Assembly (NCBI GenBank): GCA_013297925.1
Contig: JAAFJC010000003.1
Coordinates: forward strand, 1-64,000
Source of the DNA: Comamonadaceae bacterium
GTDB taxonomy: Bacteria; Pseudomonadota; Gammaproteobacteria; Burkholderiales; Burkholderiaceae_C
Reading direction: 5' to 3'
Length of the DNA: 64,000 nt
In this document: in pieces, positions 464 to 24,847 of the stretch
How the letters are laid out: every line of letters starts with the position of its first letter
Numbering within the stretch: position 1 is the first letter of the stretch
Notes under the pieces: model-generated
What the model was told of the DNA's origin: nothing
Databases searched by the model: none
The model's input: the letters and a program-made list of their open reading frames with translations, nothing else
Translations under genes and position numbers: made by a program

Positions 464-1003
464 TTACTTGGCAAAGGCCGCACCACCCAGTGCAAACACT
501 GAGTTCGGTGCATTGATGCGAATCGGTTTAACAACCTGCATCGGCGCAATCGCTTTCTTGAGCATGGGCTTGGCTTCGATATGCACGCCTTTAGCGAGCT
601 GCTCGTCCACCATGTCTTGCAGGCTCACGGAGCCGAGGAATTCGCTCATGCGGGCATTGAGCTTGCTCCAGAGATCGTGCGTCATGCAGCGGCCAGCTTC
701 GCCGCCATTGCAGTTTTCTTTGCCCCCGCAGCTGGTCGCGTCCATCGCCTCATCCACCGAGGTAATGATCTCGGCAATGGTGATGCCGCCGGACTCGCGC
801 CCCAGCGTATAGCCGCCGCCTGGCCCACGGGTGGATTCCACCAAGCCATTGCGGCGCAGCTTGCCAAAAAGCTGCTCCAGATAAGACAGGGAAATTTGCT
901 GACGCTGGCTGATGGCAGCTAGCGTTACAGGGCCTGCGTTTTGACGCAAAGCCAGATCAATCATTGCCGTGACCGCAAAGCGGCCTTTTGTAGTGAGACG
1001 CAT
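464..1003 (-). CDS. iscR: Fe-S cluster-sensing regulator IscR
   Basis: This 179-residue Rrf2-family winged-helix regulator starts [19 protein letters not shown]. Cluster-ligand candidates are C92, C98, C106 and H109; the third cysteine is two residues later than in E. coli IscR (C104), so there is a small insertion in the loop. In known systems holo-IscR represses the isc operon and apo-IscR activates other targets. The C-terminal tail (about residues 145-179) is longer and Ala/Pro-rich compared with the E. coli protein of about 160 residues. It is the first gene of the isc operon and is preceded by two 25-bp sites that look like type 1 IscR operators, which suggests autorepression. Confidence 0.96.
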
Positions 1004-1173
1004 GCTTAGCTCCTAAGGTGCCGATACATTCATAAAGATCTTGAATACAACAACTTCAAGACCACGTCTCCGCCCGTTCTCGCCCCGATACAGCTGGGGC
1101 AGCCTTCCGACGATTCGTGATTTGTTAGATTTGCCGTACCGCTGTCACCTTGACACTTCGCTAGCCGGTTTTT

Positions 1174-1198
1174 AATCTTGAGCATTTCACTCAAGTAT
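1174..1198 (-). promoter_or_regulatory. Putative type 1 IscR operator, proximal copy
   Basis: On the reverse strand this 25-bp site begins ATACTTGAG and ends CTCAAGATT, with a 7-base AT-rich centre. CTTGAG and CTCAAG are perfect inverted arms. It aligns along its length with the second site 30 bp upstream. The general form (ATA, YTGA, seven bases, then a CTCRRG-like arm) resembles the type 1 IscR sites known upstream of iscR. It lies about 170 bp before the iscR start codon. No footprint evidence is available. Confidence 0.5.
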
Positions 1199-1203
1199 AA
1201 CAG

Positions 1204-1228
1204 ATACCCCACGAATTCGCTCAGGTAT
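1204..1228 (-). promoter_or_regulatory. Putative type 1 IscR operator, distal copy
   Basis: On the reverse strand the site begins ATACCTGAGCGAA and ends GGGGTAT. It matches the proximal site in the left half and matches the expected type 1 ending (GGGTAT) in the right half. The 30-bp centre-to-centre spacing is close to three helical turns, compatible with cooperative binding over the iscR promoter. Confidence 0.45.
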
Positions 1229-1290
1229 GACTATACCGCAGTTACAGGCTTTGTCCAAGACAATCTAAGTGAATGATCAAAAATAACCTA

Positions 1291-1800
1291 CTAATCGGAC
1301 AAACGGTAGTTTTCCCAACGATCTCGTAACTTCCTGACCAGCCCGTCACTCGCGGCTTCTACCAAGTCTAATACCTGCTCAAAACCCGCTTTTCCGCCGT
1401 GATACGGATCAGGCACGACCTCACCCAACTGCTCGGCAGCATCAGCAAAGCTCATAAAAAGCTTGAGCTTGTGGGCATGCTCGGGCGGGCAGTCGCCCTG
1501 TAGCAGCGCCAAATTGTCCCAATCCATCGCCAAAATCAGATCAAATTTCTCATAATCCGCCTCGCTGATCTGCCGCGCCCGAAGCTTGGAAAGATCGTAC
1601 CCCCGCCGCAGAGCATGCTCTTGGCTGCGCTCATCCGGCGGGCTACCGGGGTGGTAGTTATGCGTGCCCGCAGAGTCAATCATCACCCTGCCCCCAAGCC
1701 CCGCCTGCGCCACCTTCGCACGCAGCACGCCCTCGGCGGTGGGGCTGCGGCAGATGTTGCCCATGCAGACGAGGAGGATGTGGAGGGTTGGTTGACTCAT
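1291..1800 (-). CDS. Low-molecular-weight protein-tyrosine phosphatase
   Basis: The 169-residue protein has the family signature near its N-terminus: the CX5R phosphate loop is C12-MGNIC-R18 followed by S19, and the general-acid aspartate is D131 in the DPYH motif. It hydrolyses phosphotyrosine, or possibly phosphoarginine, in the cytoplasm; the substrate cannot be read from sequence. Length is normal for the family. It lies upstream of iscR on the same strand but is separated by nearly 300 bp that holds the iscR regulatory region, so it is probably transcribed on its own. The same neighbour is common beside iscR in Comamonadaceae. Confidence 0.93.
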   Translation of the reverse strand: MSQPTLHILLVCMGNICRSPTAEGVLRAKVAQAGLGGRVMIDSAGTHNYHPGSPPDERSQEHALRRGYDLSKLRARQISEADYEKFDLILAMDWDNLALLQGDCPPEHAHKLKLFMSFADAAEQLGEVVPDPYHGGKAGFEQVLDLVEAASDGLVRKLRDRWENYRLSD

Positions 1801-1834
1801 ATTCTGGTGATTTTATGAGGCTTTTGGCCTAGTC

Positions 1835-1875
1835 GCCGGCATAGATATTGCGCAGAGTGCTATTGAAACTATAGC
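1835..1875 (-). repeat. 41-bp dispersed element, copy 1 (intergenic)
   Basis: Starts with GCCGGC and ends with an imperfect palindrome, CTATTGAAACTATAGC, when read on the plus strand. It is one of 18 copies of the same length in the window. It directly abuts the GGGGTTAG foldback element that follows. Confidence 0.85.
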
Positions 1876-1966
1876 GAAAAATGGGGTTAGATCAAAATTC
1901 AAGACACTCAACTCCCCGGCGCGCATCCAAGCCCAGACGAAATTTTGCTCCGACCCCACTTTTCGC
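1874..1966. repeat. Foldback element with GCGAAAANTGGGG arms (REP-like), copy 1
   Basis: The left arm (1874-1900) starts GCGAAAAATGGGGTTAG. The right arm (1939-1966) is its inverted counterpart, ending CCCCACTTTTCGC. A related element lies at 6370-6460. Arms with GGGGTCAG and an AATTT core resemble extragenic palindromes associated with REP-type Y1 transposases, but no such transposase gene is in the window. Confidence 0.6.
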
Positions 1967-2031
1967 GGTACTCGCCAATCGTTTCATTTTTGCTGAGGCT
2001 TCAGAGCTCAACCGTTTCACTCCACCCGCTC

Positions 2032-2166
2032 ACCTGCGGCCTAGCGCAGGGCAGTCGTCTCGTAAACTTTTTTGAAAACACACGCGATAAAGCTCATCAC
2101 AAGCTAACCCTCTCCCCGCGCGCCTTCCAAAAAACTTTCCAATCCAACCACCCTACGCTCTCCGCT
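2032..2166 (+). repeat. 135-bp inverted repeat, left copy
   Basis: This segment reads ACCTGCGGCCTAGCGCAG at its outer end and CTACGCTCTCCGCT at its inner end. It is matched, inverted and with few mismatches outside a diverged central stretch, by 2882-3016. The pair flanks the single small gene at 2272-2670. The rest of 1967-2271 holds no gene I can support. Confidence 0.8.
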
Positions 2167-2271
2167 AGGAAACGGGTTAACTTTCGAGTTGCCCAGCGCG
2201 CAGCAAGCGCCGCGAATCGGCAACCTGCAGCCGCGTGTCCGCACCGAGCGAACTGCTATTGGGTATGCGGC

Positions 2272-2670
2272 TCACTTGCCAAATATCTTTCTTAGAATTT
2301 CCCATGGTTTTGGTTGCACTGAAGCTCTGTAGAAAACTCGCGCTTCTTGGGAGAAGAAATTTGCTACCGGAGGAAAGAAGGAGATCGGCCAACGCCCAGT
2401 TGGCACCTCCCCAATTGCATCGACGGCGGCCAGCGTCTCGACTTCGCTATGCTCGGGACTCATGCAAGTAATGCCGATTGTGTAGGTGAAGAAACCATCA
2501 GAATCCGTGCCAACCCTTTCCATAAGGCCTATGCACGCCATAAGAACATTGGGTCTATTTGAAAAATGCTTTTGGAGGGCGAGAATTACTTCCGTCGGCT
2601 CCTCTGCCGGGATTCCTATTCGAATAGAAGTTCCTGGTGGAATCTCCCCTTGTATGTTAACGTTCGACAA
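2272..2670 (-). CDS. SseB C-terminal-domain-like small protein
   Basis: A 132-residue ORF with a TTG start (an AGAGGG stretch lies just upstream). The body GTSIRIGIPAEEPTEVILAL, then YTIGITCM, then FFPPVANFFSQEARVFYRA near the C-terminus, resembles the C-terminal domain of SseB-type proteins (a GxPxxxP-type entry, an alpha helix, then a YxIGID strand). The function of that domain is not established; it is often carried by immunity-like or cassette genes. Codon use is AT-richer than in surrounding core genes, and the gene sits alone between two 135-bp inverted repeats, which suggests it was acquired as a unit. I see no signal peptide or membrane segment. The family call is tentative; that this is a real gene is likelier than not. 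Confidence 0.5.
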   Translation of the reverse strand: MSNVNIQGEIPPGTSIRIGIPAEEPTEVILALQKHFSNRPNVLMACIGLMERVGTDSDGFFTYTIGITCMSPEHSEVETLAAVDAIGEVPTGRWPISFFPPVANFFSQEARVFYRASVQPKPWEILRKIFGK

Positions 2671-2881
2671 AATGCCCTCTAACTAAATGCAAACCACAAA
2701 AGCTTCATTATAAAAATACCAAGGTAGCCTAAGCTAGGCATGAAATCGTCGACTTAGATTGATTTTTATGTTTTCGAACACAGGTATTAAAGAAACGACA
2801 AACACAGCAGTTTATAAGCCAATTCACACCCCAGTTTTCAGACAAAAAAGACGCTGAACTTAGCACTCCAACAACCCATCC

Positions 2882-3016
2882 AGCGGAGAGCGTAGGGTGG
2901 TTGGATCGGAAACTTTTTTGGAAGGCGCGCGGGGAAAGGGTTGGATTGTGAAAACCGCCATCGCGTGTGTTTTCAAAAAAGTTTACGAGACGACTACCCT
3001 GCGCTAGGCCGCAGGT
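2882..3016 (-). repeat. 135-bp inverted repeat, right copy
   Basis: Inverted counterpart of 2032-2166: it starts AGCGGAGAGCGTAGGGTGG and ends GCGCTAGGCCGCAGGT. Short ORFs across both copies share the same translated stretch only because the DNA is repeated. Between the gene at 2670 and this repeat (2671-2881) I see only AT-rich sequence. Confidence 0.8.
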
Positions 3017-3072
3017 ACAAAAGGCCGAACGCAACGCACAGAACAACAAAAATCAAAGAAGAATGCCAATTT

Positions 3073-3113
3073 TCTGGCACAGAACCTGCGCGAGGCGCTA
3101 TCTATTTTGCAGT
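3073..3113 (-). repeat. 41-bp dispersed element, copy 2 (degenerate, intergenic)
   Basis: The GCCGGC end has drifted to TCTGGC, but AGAACCTGCGCGAGGCGCTA and the terminal AGT align base for base with better copies, at the same 41-bp length. It lies 43 bp before the prmC start codon. Confidence 0.7.
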
Positions 3114-3156
3114 AAGGGTTAAGCAAAAAATATGGGGCTCCTTTAAAATCTAAACC

Positions 3157-3996
3157 ATGCCCACGATCACCTCCCTGCTCAAAGGTGCAACAGCCCAAGG
3201 CCTGCCGCGGCATGAGGCGCATTACCTGATGCTGCATGCTTGTGGCCGCGCAACGCATGATCGCGCATGGCTGCTCACGCATGAGGCAGACTTGCTCAAA
3301 GATGAGCTGGTGCAGCGCTGGCAGGATGCTGTGATGCAGCGCCAGAGCGGTGTGCCGGTGGCTTACATCGTGGGTAGCAAGGAGTTTCATGGCTTGCAGC
3401 TGAAGATCAGCCCCGCCGTGCTTGACCCGCGCGATGACACCGAGACTTTGGTGGATTGGGCACTTGAATTGATCCCGCTGGATGAACCTTTCAAAGTGCT
3501 TGATTTGGGCACGGGCAGCGGCGCAGTGGCTTTGGCTATTCGCGCCCAGCGGCCCTTGGCGCAAGTTACGGCCACGGATGCTTCTGCGCAGGCTTTGGCT
3601 ATAGCAGCGGCCAACTCCGCAGCGCTTGAGCTGCCCGTGCGTTTTGTGCAAACGAATGTGCGCGATCCGCATTGGTTTTCTGCGCTCGAAGGCCAGGTGT
3701 TTGATCTGATCGTGTCCAACCCGCCTTACATTGCGCAAGGTGATCGACACCTAGCGGCATTGAAGCACGAGCCTGCGATGGCGCTGACCAGCGGCAAAGA
3801 TGGGCTAGACGCGCTCCGCAGCATCATTACGAATGCATCTTCGCATCTGCCCTCGGGCGGCCATCTGCTGCTAGAGCATGGCTACGATCAGGCTGAGCGT
3901 GTGTGCGGTTTGTTGTCTGTTAACGGGTTTGTGGACGCCATCACTCGCCACGATTTGGGGGGATTGGATCGTTGCTCTGGCGCGAGAATACTATAA
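3157..3996 (+). CDS. prmC: Peptide chain release factor N5-glutamine methyltransferase PrmC
   Basis: This 279-residue class I SAM methyltransferase methylates the GGQ glutamine of release factors RF1 and RF2. The SAM-binding motif DLGTGSG lies at residues 116-122 and the catalytic NPPY at 188-191. The N-terminal helical domain (about 1-90) leads into DPRDDTETLVDWAL, the usual release-factor-binding hinge. In many Comamonadaceae prfA lies directly upstream; here an islet with inverted repeats is found instead and prfA is not in the window. The last two codons and the TAA stop fall inside a copy of the 41-bp element (3990-4030), so the extreme C-terminus (ARIL) may have been remodelled. Confidence 0.96.
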   Translation: MPTITSLLKGATAQGLPRHEAHYLMLHACGRATHDRAWLLTHEADLLKDELVQRWQDAVMQRQSGVPVAYIVGSKEFHGLQLKISPAVLDPRDDTETLVDWALELIPLDEPFKVLDLGTGSGAVALAIRAQRPLAQVTATDASAQALAIAAANSAALELPVRFVQTNVRDPHWFSALEGQVFDLIVSNPPYIAQGDRHLAALKHEPAMALTSGKDGLDALRSIITNASSHLPSGGHLLLEHGYDQAERVCGLLSVNGFVDAITRHDLGGLDRCSGARIL

Positions 3997-4030
3997 ATTT
4001 AATAGCGCCTTGCGCAGTCAATACGCCGGC
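3990..4030 (+). repeat. 41-bp dispersed element, copy 3 (supplies the prmC stop codon)
   Basis: Begins with the palindrome ACTATAAATTTAATAGC and ends TACGCCGGC. The TAA stop codon of prmC (3994-3996) is within the palindrome. Confidence 0.85.
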
Positions 4031-21802: not shown

Positions 21803-22078
21803 ATGGAGTTTAATTGGTCAGAAACGAAACGTGCCGCAAACATCAAAGCGCACGGTCTTGATTTCTTAGACGCTGCCAGCGTTTTTGAAGGCATGACATT
21901 TACTTTCGAGGATGACCGTTTCTCCTATGGCGAGCAGCGCTTCGTGACATTGGGTTTGCTCGCTGGCATTACTGTTTCTATCGTACATACGGAGACTGAA
22001 CATGAAATCCGCGTCATCTCTTTCCGAAAAGCAACCAAGCGCGAGTCGCAAATCTACCTCAATGAAATCCAAAACTGA
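21803..22078 (+). CDS. brnT: BrnT family toxin (RNase)
   Basis: A 91-residue protein starting MEFNWSETKRAANIKAHGLD, then FLDAASVFEG and ERFV-type EQRFVTLGLLAG, and ending IRVISFRKATKRESQIY: all hallmark positions of BrnT, a RelE-fold ribonuclease that halts translation. The catalytic R-K/R-E patch in the last 20 residues is intact. It is the first gene of a toxin-antitoxin pair, 17 bp overlapping brnA. It sits directly next to an integron remnant, in a region of accessory DNA. Confidence 0.92.
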   Translation: MEFNWSETKRAANIKAHGLDFLDAASVFEGMTFTFEDDRFSYGEQRFVTLGLLAGITVSIVHTETEHEIRVISFRKATKRESQIYLNEIQN

Positions 22079-22316
22079 TTGGGCAAGCCTGAAGTCTGGC
22101 GCAGCCAAAGTAAAAACGTCGGCAGAACACCCAGAGTCCGACGTTAGGCACATTGTTCGCGGCATGGTTCGCAAGGGCCTGAAGCCCATGCCCGCCAAAG
22201 CCTCTATTTCGCTGCGTGTGGATCAAGACGTGCTCGAATGGTTCAAAACGCAAGGCGCCGGCTATCAGACGCGCATCAACACGGTATTGCGGGCGTTCCG
22301 TGATGCATCGGTTTAA
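22062..22316 (+). CDS. brnA: BrnA family antitoxin
   Basis: From the ATG at 22062 the protein has 84 residues: a basic, disordered N-terminus, then PAKASISLRVDQDVLEWFKT and GYQTRINTVLRAFRDA, the ribbon-helix-helix DNA-binding part found in BrnA. It neutralises BrnT and represses the operon. An ATG at 22002 in the same frame would add 20 residues inside brnT; I favour the later start, but the choice is uncertain. Confidence 0.88.
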   Translation: MKSKTDWASLKSGAAKVKTSAEHPESDVRHIVRGMVRKGLKPMPAKASISLRVDQDVLEWFKTQGAGYQTRINTVLRAFRDASV

Positions 22317-22552: not shown

Positions 22553-22801
22553 TTACTCGGGCCTTCGCACAAAAGGATTCGACTGTTTCGGTCGCATGTT
22601 GAGCGGCTGCCGCTCATGATGAAAACAAATGAGCTTTTTCATCCAATACACGTAAGCCACTTCGTTCCACAGGCTATAGTACGGGCAACGGATTTGTTTC
22701 CGCAACTGATCCAGCAGCCGAATTGACTTGGACACAGGCGTGCTGGTTTTTCTGGACTTGTTGTGACTGCTCGTGAATACAAAATATCGCTGGCTAGCCA
22801 T
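22553..22801 (-). pseudogene. Integron integrase (IntI) N-terminal remnant
   Basis: The 82-residue ORF contains SIRLLDQLRKQIRCPYYSLW and EVAYVYWMKKLICFHHERQP, which match the N-terminal SAM-like DNA-binding domain of integron integrases (pattern LLDQVR-IR-HYS-RTE-AYV-WI-RFI-FH). The reading frame stops shortly after, so the catalytic tyrosine-recombinase domain (about 240 residues) is missing. It points away from the neighbouring cassette gene, the canonical divergent arrangement of intI and cassettes. It cannot be active as a recombinase. Confidence 0.72.
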
Positions 22802-22891
22802 ATTGCAAGCCGCTTGGTGGGCGTTTTTGCTACCGATGTTACAGAGACAAAAGCCGTGATTGGTGGACAGACACCTGTCGCCCTATATTGA

Positions 22892-22898
22892 GTTAGGC
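22892..22898 (+). other. Integron recombination core site (GTTAGGC) before the cassette
   Basis: GTTAGGC fits the GTTRRRY core at which cassettes join attI or a preceding attC. It lies between the intI remnant and the cassette gene, 23 bp before the cassette start codon. Confidence 0.6.
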
Positions 22899-22920
22899 CT
22901 TCACATAGAACGTTAAAAGC

Positions 22921-23544
22921 ATGATCGACAAGTACAAATACATGTTCGGCTTGGAAGGGCAACAGCATTTTTTACGTGCCGCCATTGACGCACTTGAACC
23001 CATTGAGCGCGCTCTAAAAGATGATGATTGGGAAGAGTCTTCTGTATCTTTTAAAAATAATCCAACGCTTTATAAGCGCCAAGAGCCAACAGCAGTTTCA
23101 GGAATTGAAATTGTTGGGGGGTTGGCTTTTTTTACAGCCACATGCTTTGGTAAAAAGGTCTTTGATGAGTTCTACGACAGGCTATTGAAGCGCCCTGTGG
23201 GAGCATGCATCGATACGCTCCTCGAGAAGATTAGTTTCCAAGGTAACAAACTCCTGGAGTTTCGCGACGTGGTCTATTTCGAAGACTTGGATGTCGCAGT
23301 AGTTGTACGCATCCTGACCAGAACTCAAGGTGCCAAGGTCATTGATGAACAACTGCTTGAAGCTCATCGCCTTGCGCACGCATACCTTTCTGAAAATGGG
23401 AAGAAGGCGCCAATCCACTGCCATCGAGTTGTGGAGGGAAAAGTTGATCCAGAGCCTCAACTCTTTATTTCAATCGAAAGCATGCGCAACGAGGAAAAGG
23501 CGAAAATGAGAGCCTCGCGCAGCTATAGGCCAAATAGGATATGA
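22921..23544 (+). CDS. Integron cassette gene of unknown function
   Basis: A 207-residue protein with no family I recognise. It starts MIDKYKYMFGLEGQQHFLRA, with an amphipathic N-terminal half, a short hydrophobic stretch (GIEIVGGLAFFTATCFG near residue 60) and a basic C-terminus. It has no signal peptide or obvious catalytic motif. Base composition is AT-richer than the flanking genes. It lies between a GTTAGGC core and a well-formed attC site, so it is a gene cassette. Cassettes in chromosomal integrons often encode toxin-antitoxin, anti-phage or niche functions; nothing here selects among these. Confidence 0.75.
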   Translation: MIDKYKYMFGLEGQQHFLRAAIDALEPIERALKDDDWEESSVSFKNNPTLYKRQEPTAVSGIEIVGGLAFFTATCFGKKVFDEFYDRLLKRPVGACIDTLLEKISFQGNKLLEFRDVVYFEDLDVAVVVRILTRTQGAKVIDEQLLEAHRLAHAYLSENGKKAPIHCHRVVEGKVDPEPQLFISIESMRNEEKAKMRASRSYRPNRI

Positions 23545-23624
23545 ATACGGCCATTGCCCGAGTTTTGTGTACTCTCAATCCTTACGATTAGTCAGATGCG
23601 AAATCCCATTCGCACACACCGCTG

Positions 23625-23716
23625 GCCTAACTTTTTGTTCAAGCAGACGCCAACCTTGCGGTTGCTTCCCTCCAGTCGCTTCGTTCCATACGGCGCAGCT
23701 TAACGTAGCGTTAAGC
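23625..23716 (+). other. attC recombination site (59-base element)
   Basis: The outer R'' box is GCCTAAC (23625-23631) and the R' box is GTTAAGC (23710-23716). The inner L'' TTCAAGCAGACGCC pairs with L' GGCGCAGCTTAA, leaving an extrahelical base; a 35-base loop separates them. The arrangement and several bases match attC sites of aadA-type cassettes. It directly follows the cassette gene. The remaining sequence from 23545 to 23913 holds only this site and one 41-bp repeat. Confidence 0.85.
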
Positions 23717-23913: not shown

Positions 23914-24837
23914 ATGTCTTTTATCCACATCATCGTGCCCGCCGCCGGTTTGCAGCCTTTTGAGATCGGCGCTCAGAGCGTGGAGGCGTTTTCGCTGCCT
24001 GCGGCTTGGCGAGAAGAGGCCGCGGAGCGCATTGAGCTGCATGAGGATTCGCTGAGCCTGCCTTGGGAAATTGCGTATGCGCGGGCGCTGGAGATTCCGA
24101 GCGACGAAGGCGCGGTGCCATGGGCGGCTTTTGAGACGCAGACCTTAGCCCAGCCCTGCGCTTGGCTGTATCCCTGCCATTTGGATGTGGGCATGACGGA
24201 TATGGTGATGCAACCCGTGGATCGCCTACGGCTCTCGGATGCTGAATCGCGCGAGCTGCATGCTTTGATTGCGCCTTATTTTGAGCAAGATGGCATCACG
24301 CTCAGATATCACAGCGCCACGCGCTGGCTGGCGCTGGGCGAGCAGTTTGCTGATTTTGAATGCGCATCGTTGGCGCGGGTGCAGGGGCGCAGCATCAATG
24401 ATTTTTTGCCTGATACGGGGGAGTTTCCGCAACAGCTCAAACTCAGCCGTTTGCAGGCGGAGATGCAGATGCTGCTTTACACGCATCCGATCAGCAATGC
24501 GCGGCAAGCGCGGGGGCTGCCGACGGTGAATTCGTTTTGGGTGGATGGGGCGGGCACTCTGGACGCGCTGCCTCAGCCAAAGGGTTCGCTCAAGCTCGAT
24601 ACGCGGCTGCAAGAAGCCCAGCATAGCGAGAGCGCGTACGCAAGCGCTTGGCGCAGCTTGCTGGCGCAGTGGCAAACAGAAGGCGAGCAGGCGATAGCGG
24701 CGGGCCGCAACTACGGTGTGACGCTTTGCGGCGACAAGGCGGCGATCACGGTTTGGGCTGCCGCGCCGAGTTTCAAACATAAATTTTTAAGTCTTTTAGG
24801 CCGGTCGCCGGCAAAGAATCTGCGCGGAGTGCTATGA
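23914..24837 (+). CDS. Phosphoglycerate-mutase-like (RpfE-type) conserved protein
   Basis: A 307-residue protein starting MSFIHIIVPAAGLQPFEIGA. It has PCHLDVGMTDMVMQPVDRL near 90 and the LQAEMQMLLYTHPISNARQA / GLPTVNSFWVDGAG blocks near 190-215. This matches a conserved Burkholderiales family annotated as cofactor-independent phosphoglycerate mutase-like or regulatory protein of the RpfE type; catalytic metal ligands of true iPGM are not evident. The last nine residues and stop codon (299-307) are encoded by a copy of the 41-bp repeat, and the stop codon overlaps the recJ ATG by 4 bp. It is normally found directly upstream of recJ in related genomes. Confidence 0.65.
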   Translation: MSFIHIIVPAAGLQPFEIGAQSVEAFSLPAAWREEAAERIELHEDSLSLPWEIAYARALEIPSDEGAVPWAAFETQTLAQPCAWLYPCHLDVGMTDMVMQPVDRLRLSDAESRELHALIAPYFEQDGITLRYHSATRWLALGEQFADFECASLARVQGRSINDFLPDTGEFPQQLKLSRLQAEMQMLLYTHPISNARQARGLPTVNSFWVDGAGTLDALPQPKGSLKLDTRLQEAQHSESAYASAWRSLLAQWQTEGEQAIAAGRNYGVTLCGDKAAITVWAAAPSFKHKFLSLLGRSPAKNLRGVL

Positions 24838-24847
24838 AATTAATAGT
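24807..24847 (-). repeat. 41-bp dispersed element, copy 11 (spans the end of one gene and the recJ start)
   Basis: GCCGGCAAAGAATCTGCGC followed by GTGCTATGAAATTAATAGT. The palindrome contains the ATGA overlap at 24834-24837, so the element supplies both the upstream stop and the recJ start. Confidence 0.88.

What the first reader, a model, noticed from the sequence alone, without database searches (positions are those of the whole stretch)
2032..3016. Single small gene between 135-bp inverted repeats, inserted upstream of prmC
2032-2166 and 2882-3016 are inverted copies that enclose one AT-rich gene (SseB C-terminal-like). prfA, which usually precedes prmC in this family, is not found. The inverted copies have no transposase between them, so the unit resembles a gene-carrying MITE or a cassette mobilised in trans.
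Basis: partly seen in the sequence, partly recalled or inferred. Interest (0 to 1): 0.55.

Follow-up and report, generated by a model that had tools for sequence, protein, structure and literature searches.

The report
Gene cassettes between paired DNA hairpins
A small foreign-looking gene sits between two mirror-image hairpin-forming repeats, and the same genome and a related species carry about a dozen such packages, nearly all holding different genes, which points to a little-known way of moving single genes into bacterial chromosomes.

Summary
The inverted repeat is real: 2032-2166 and 2882-3016, 135 nt, 91%. It is one of 23 copies in the genome; 19 lie at nine loci as inverted pairs (one with a third copy), four are single. 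Eight of the nine pairs enclose genes, all unrelated: DUF6988, a desaturase, toxin-antitoxin modules, unknowns, here SseB_C. Congeners G001 and G002 (Variovorax sp. PCZ-1) lack the insertion at this locus. At two sites occupied in both G000 and G002 the cargo differs. The repeat is itself a ~190-nt imperfect palindrome with compensatory changes, folding best on the strand that reads out of the cassette. Hairpins with the same apical motif and other stems occur in two more genera of the family. No target duplication, no attC boxes, no integron integrase over cut-off in carriers.

Best reading: a new variant of non-autonomous inverted-repeat cassettes, probably mobilised in trans by an unidentified enzyme, with D-D recombination swapping cargo and moving chromosome segments. 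The prfA argument fails: prfA and prmC are apart in G002 too. Mobility is inferred from comparison.

The parts
2005..2187 (+). Left hairpin repeat D (core 2032-2166), outer end to the left
   Evidence: palindrome
2272..2670 (-). Cargo gene, 132 aa, SseB_C domain
   Evidence: Pfam PF14581 27.9 bits, cut-off 22.5; 2 of 399 family genomes have a match, one of them this genome itself, the other G343 at 45% identity
2857..3051 (-). Right hairpin repeat D' (core 2882-3016), inverted, outer end to the right
1864..1999 (+). Repeat A: GGGGTCAGA hairpin whose ends resemble the sequences flanking the genome's RAYT gene; by eye it adjoins D at a near-fixed distance in 7 of 23 copies of G000
1812..1875 (+). 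Repeat B, left copy (very common intergenic repeat)
   Evidence: 19 hits at E <= 0.01 in the 64-kb window
3064..3112 (+). Repeat B, right copy, same direction; by eye the nearer match to the single B at the G002 empty site

Best explanation
The unit is one member of a family of non-autonomous gene cassettes. Each usually carries one gene (or a toxin-antitoxin pair) between two inverted copies of a structured element, D (about 190 nt). D is a long imperfect hairpin kept by selection; the more stable fold is on the strand that reads from the cargo outward, so each strand of a cassette ends 3' in a strong hairpin. Shown: copies, pairing, orientation, covariation, strand bias, different cargo in different pairs and at shared sites, congeners without the insertion. 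Inferred: an enzyme supplied in trans recognises the folded D ends and inserts the cassette between genes, often next to the abundant B repeat; afterwards D-D recombination swaps cargo and moves chromosome segments. The cargo itself (SseB_C here) is passenger DNA.
For: 23 copies in G000, 8 plus one truncated in G002. Among neighbouring copies under 4 kb apart in the loci read, 14 have outer ends out, 2 point the same way (L017, L145) and 0 face each other (the L145 members of this count include weak and partial hits, and one facing neighbour pair there is 4.3 kb apart). Cargo proteins are unrelated: among 15 compared all against all only matches of 19-42 residues at E 0.004-0.01 appeared (annotation). 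Cargo GC averages 46.6% (13 units, 40.0-53.5) against 55.0-60.5% for 11 neighbouring genes. The stop codon lies within 36 nt of the inner edge of D in 7 of 11 units measured. The window locus is empty in G002 and G001; L012 and L014 sites are empty in G002, and the D profile finds no remnant at those G002 sites or at G002's prmC. At L010/L037 and L017/L035 the flanks and D align but the cargo does not. Partners of the 9 G000 pairs are more alike than re-dealt partners (0.837 against 0.791; 144 of 20000). Covariation 0.123 against shuffled 0.046, 0 of 500. The outward strand folds better in 31 of 31 D copies, and in 5 of 5 and 3 of 4 copies of the other two genera. Same apical motif with different stems in G090, G146 and G369, reversed-pattern control 0.
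Against: No enzyme found. No target duplication (mean shared word 4.45 against 4.54 for re-dealt flanks, 11 pairs). The L012 and L014 empty sites in G002 hold 55 and 74 bp of other sequence instead of a clean join. In G369 and G146 all five copies read are single, without a partner within about 5 kb either side; G000 has four and G002 three single copies too. Part of the strand bias is composition: shuffled copies give -11.7 against -27.3 kcal/mol observed, and 391 of 620 shuffles reach the smallest observed gap. On the inward strand the left copy of the window folds no better than shuffles (z -1.5). One covariation measure, further pair types, is not above shuffles (8 against 7.8, 346 of 500). 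In the window itself the stop codon is 85 nt from D. L011 has two convergent units.
Confidence: 0.6

Rival explanations
1. D is a solitary transcribed hairpin MITE (ERIC/NEMIS-like). Two copies that land either side of a gene act as a composite element, as TIMEs do; there is no dedicated cassette system.
For: Single copies exist: L015, L018, L019, L020 in G000, L036, L038, L040 in G002, and all five copies read in G369 and G146. RNA-like fold with G-U pairs. TIME-COMP elements are a precedent (passages of PMC4133298).
Against: TIME composites occur in either orientation, whereas 14 of 16 close neighbours here are outer-ends-out. The stop codon often abuts D. L014 and the G090 L144 pair are paired with little or nothing between them.
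Confidence: 0.25
2. Homologous recombination alone: D copies are docking sequences, and foreign genes enter by transformation through crossing over in flanking D copies.
For: Same sites with different cargo (L010/L037, L017/L035). Neighbours split between loci with D at the breaks: panC next to a bmp gene in G002 but in two D loci in G000; L016-left next to L011-right in G002 (gene names by eye).
Against: Does not explain occupied against empty sites, nor why the hairpin fold is conserved across genera with different stem sequences.
Confidence: 0.1
3. The cassettes are scattered integron cassettes and D is a derived attC.
For: Single-gene cargo with toxin-antitoxin pairs, stop codon often close to the hairpin, strand-biased fold. 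The window holds what looks like a decayed integron: intI remnant, one cassette, one attC.
Against: No RYYYAAC/GTTRRRY box pair in 31 of 31 D copies with 40-nt flanks, even with 4 of 7 matching positions allowed, while the same scan finds the one attC of the window. Pairs are mostly inverted, not in direct arrays. No integron integrase over cut-off in G000, G002, G090, G146 or G369 (matches below it reach 108 bits in G146; cut-off 265); the four tested genomes with one (G001, G004, G005, G006) gave no D in the searches that covered them.
Confidence: 0.03

Closest known systems
TIMEs and TIME-COMP elements (Tn3-derived inverted-repeat miniature elements), PMC4133298, passages seen
   Same: No transposase; inverted repeats; mobilise enclosed DNA; can carry a toxin-antitoxin module; predicted RNA fold
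   Different: TIMEs have 38-bp Tn3 IRs, direct repeats on transposition (5 bp for TIME-RES), are usually single-copy, and their composites occur in both orientations; D is a ~190-nt conserved hairpin, 23 copies in G000 and 8 in G002, mostly outer ends out, no duplication seen. Tn3-type ends were not tested for
Mobile insertion cassettes of TnXax1 in Xanthomonas, PMC6304161, passages seen
   Same: Passenger genes between long inverted repeats, no transposition enzyme, presumed mobilised in trans
   Different: There the parent Tn3-family transposon is known; here no parent element was found
Integron gene cassettes and attC sites, PMC2727003, passages seen
   Same: Single-gene units (recalled), hairpin site with a preferred strand and unpaired bases at set places
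   Different: Two inverted sites per unit, no attC box pair, no integrase over cut-off in carriers
ERIC, NEMIS/Correia and REPIN repeats (PMC2267715, PMC2649163, PMC3116915: search listing only)
   Same: Dispersed intergenic palindromes able to fold
   Different: As far as I recall these do not bracket a series of different genes in fixed orientation; the RAYT of this genome is flanked by A-type ends, not D

Membership tests
Non-autonomous inverted-repeat cassette (MITE with cargo, MIC, TIME-COMP) | Inverted repeats enclosing passenger DNA without a transposase | tested here: met
   none of 15 cargo proteins hits a transposase or recombinase model
Non-autonomous inverted-repeat cassette (MITE with cargo, MIC, TIME-COMP) | Multiple copies at different sites, and relatives without the insertion | tested here: met
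   L012 and L014 empty sites hold 55 and 74 bp of other sequence
Non-autonomous inverted-repeat cassette (MITE with cargo, MIC, TIME-COMP) | Target-site duplication | tested here: not met
   11 pairs, no excess over re-dealt flanks; insertions may be too old to show it
Non-autonomous inverted-repeat cassette (MITE with cargo, MIC, TIME-COMP) | Ends match an autonomous transposon in the genome | tested here: inconclusive
   no transposase between D copies; the transposases of the genome were not surveyed
Integron cassette | attC core boxes RYYYAAC and GTTRRRY (recalled) | tested here: not met
   0 of 31 D copies at 6, 5 or 4 of 7 matching positions; the scan finds the attC at window 23625-23716
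Integron cassette | Integron integrase in the carrier | tested here: not met
   no TIGR02249 match over cut-off in 5 of 5 D carriers (best 108 bits, G146); over cut-off in 4 of 7 others
REPIN (RAYT-dispersed palindrome) | Copies flank the RAYT gene | tested here: not met
   the RAYT locus L151 of G000 has A-type ends and no D; RAYT-type genes occur in 12 of 12 genomes searched, with and without D
ERIC/NEMIS-type RNA hairpin repeat | Dispersed palindrome with compensatory changes | tested here: met
ERIC/NEMIS-type RNA hairpin repeat | Transcribed and processed by RNase III | not testable with these tools
   needs RNA data
SseB_C protein (cargo) | Match to PF14581 over the curated cut-off | tested here: met
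   27.9 bits, cut-off 22.5

The most novel reading that the evidence does not exclude
A separate cassette system: paired hairpin sites that act as folded single strands (or through their RNA) and are moved by an enzyme not yet described. It captures genes with little more than their own promoter and stop codon, brackets them with outward-facing hairpins, and swaps cargo at fixed sites, as integrons do but without an attC or an integrase.
Probability: 0.22. Interest if true: 0.85.

Novelty: new variant of a known kind. Interest (0 to 1): 0.6.

Why it matters
Scattered small genes of unknown origin are common in bacterial chromosomes and usually cannot be traced to a carrier. Here a recognisable end structure marks about a dozen such loci in two species, shows that the same site can hold different genes, and gives concrete sequences with which to look for the enzyme. 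If D is acted on as a folded strand, it would be a second instance of hairpin-directed gene capture beside the integron.

Tried and rejected
prfA displaced by the insertion: rejected, the split is present in G002 without the insertion. Integron origin: weak, as above. My first attC scan of D loci used a stricter threshold than the one that found the window's attC and covered 8 loci; I repeated it for all 31 copies at equal and looser thresholds. RAYT as the mover of D: not supported. Target duplications: none. Rfam: no match at gathering threshold in 1000-4000 or in the whole window; at E <= 1 only a microRNA precursor family far below its cut-off (31 against 105 bits), taken as chance resemblance to a long hairpin. 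Exact 19-nt core word over genome contigs: 11 stretches; 4 are from Variovorax sp. PCZ-1 and hold full D copies, the other 7, from other phyla, match the D profile over 23-52 positions only and are taken as chance. The SseB_C protein scan of genome contigs gave nothing. Viral contigs (pattern) and plasmids (blastn): 0. The covariance-model search scored 10 candidates per genome with strict filters, so its negatives are weak. Papers: searches found 0; some searches gave listings in which I recognised no description of this element; the library lacks most subscription journals. The cargo relative in G343 has no D-like hit or long inverted repeat around it. In one search three of 31 D copies were skipped in the mismatch count because the motif used to split the arms was altered.

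Full report
OBSERVATION. The two arms are as described, and the 135-nt arm matches 23 places in the 3.53-Mb draft genome G000. Fetching 12 regions and aligning all copies showed nine loci with an inverted pair, same end outward (window, L009-L014, L016, L017; L017 has a third copy), and four single copies (L015, L018, L019, L020). Conservation runs further out and in than the stated ends, giving an element D of about 190 nt. D matches itself in reverse, so each arm of the reported inverted repeat is itself an imperfect palindrome.

CARGO. Pairs on different contigs enclose unrelated genes: DUF6988 (L009), a fatty-acid desaturase (L010), an unknown gene plus a ParE-type toxin with its antitoxin (L011), a UPF0158-like protein below cut-off (L012), proteins without a Pfam match over cut-off (L013, L016, L017), SseB_C (window); in G002 an SLFN/AlbA_2 protein (L035) and unknowns (L037, L039). 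L017 has a further MNT/HepT pair beside its third D. All against all, 15 cargo proteins share only short weak matches (19-42 residues, E 0.004-0.01). L014 has only about 100 bp between its two D copies. Cargo GC averages 46.6%; eleven neighbouring genes have 55.0-60.5%. Stop codons lie -4 to 36 nt from D in 7 of 11 units; the others are 78 (L039), 85 (window) and the two convergent units of L011.

SITES IN RELATIVES. Between the LMW phosphatase-like gene (named by eye) and prmC it has one B repeat where the window has about 1.2 kb of D cassette with A and a second B; in G001 the aligned parts of the same two genes end about 95 nt apart. L012 and L014 sites are also empty in G002, with 55 and 74 bp of other sequence in place of the cassette, and the D profile finds nothing there. 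L010, L017, L018 and the right side of L013 are occupied in both species; where both cargoes could be read (L010/L037, L017/L035) they differ. For the remaining loci only one flank or none was found in G002. In G002 panC and the bmp gene (named by eye) are contiguous, whereas in G000 each borders a different D cassette; likewise L016-left and L011-right are neighbours in G002. This looks like rearrangement through D copies; which species is derived was not tested.

STRUCTURE. On 31 copies and 23 pairs, 98.0% of cells pair, four pairs show changes on both sides, and the covariation score is 0.123 against 0.046 (sd 0.007) for shuffles and at most 0.052 for slid structures; the count of further pair types is not above shuffles. 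The structure came from RNAalifold on the same alignment, which favours it. The outward strand folds better in 31 of 31 copies (-64.7 against -37.4 kcal/mol as RNA); opposed transition mismatches are A.C on the inward strand, hence G.U or G.T on the outward one, 178 against 9 (28 of 31 copies), 34 against 12 in the G369/G146 type and 20 against 0 in the G090 type. Without G-U pairs the strands are nearly equal (-36.0 and -40.2), and composition alone gives -11.7 of the -27.3 difference. DNA and RNA function cannot be separated by this.

DISTRIBUTION. BLAST with D: 2 of 60 genomes, G000 being one. Covariance model: 4 of 299 family genomes, G000 included. Apical pattern: 5 of 399 family genomes (G000 20, G002 5, G090 2, G146 1, G369 4), control 0, and 1 of 399 across the order, G000 itself. 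G090 has a back-to-back inverted pair (L144) and a row D+ (weak), D+ (partial), D- with six listed ORFs between (L145). G369 and G146 have single copies whose stem differs while the apical motif is shared. Pattern searches are exact, so diverged copies are missed.

PARTNERS OF D. B is an intergenic repeat with 19 hits in the window. A resembles the ends around the genome's RAYT gene. By eye, A adjoins D in 7 of 23 copies and the CCGTTCACCCTGAGCTTGTCGAAGGG repeat in 8; these look like mosaics of independent repeats and their link to D is unexplained.

MECHANISM AND STATUS. The evidence supports a cassette unit bounded by structured ends. Insertion by a trans-acting enzyme is inference; the pair orientation, the frequent close fit to the gene and the strand bias argue for end recognition, the lack of duplications and of any enzyme argue for caution. 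Known analogues are TIME composites and TnXax1 cassettes and, in the use of a folded strand, attC.

Noticed in passing
window 22553-23716: Looks like a decayed chromosomal integron: intI remnant on the minus strand (weak TIGR02249 match, 21.4 bits, positions 1-51), one cassette ORF 22921-23544 and a 92-bp attC-like site at 23625-23716.
   Followed up: partly
window 21803-22316: Two small ORFs that look by eye like a BrnT/BrnA toxin-antitoxin pair, just beside the integron remnant.
   Followed up: no
whole window, e.g. 1812-1875, 3064-3112, 24784-24847: Repeat B, an intergenic repeat with 19 hits in 64 kb, at several loci just after a stop codon and next to D (by eye).
   Followed up: partly
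L151 (G000 C71:12406): RAYT-type gene flanked by inverted GGGGTCAGATCACATTT ends, like repeat A, so A is probably its REPIN.
   Followed up: partly
L013, L016, L011 against G002: Gene neighbours contiguous in G002 are split between different D cassettes in G000, suggesting chromosome rearrangement through D.
   Followed up: partly
L145 (G090 C12): Row of two same-direction D-like hits (one weak, one partial) and one inverted copy with six small ORFs between, like a short array.
   Followed up: partly
A2 alignment, loop columns about 64-92: D copies fall by eye into two loop types; some pairs carry one of each (L012, L016, L017, L039).
   Followed up: no
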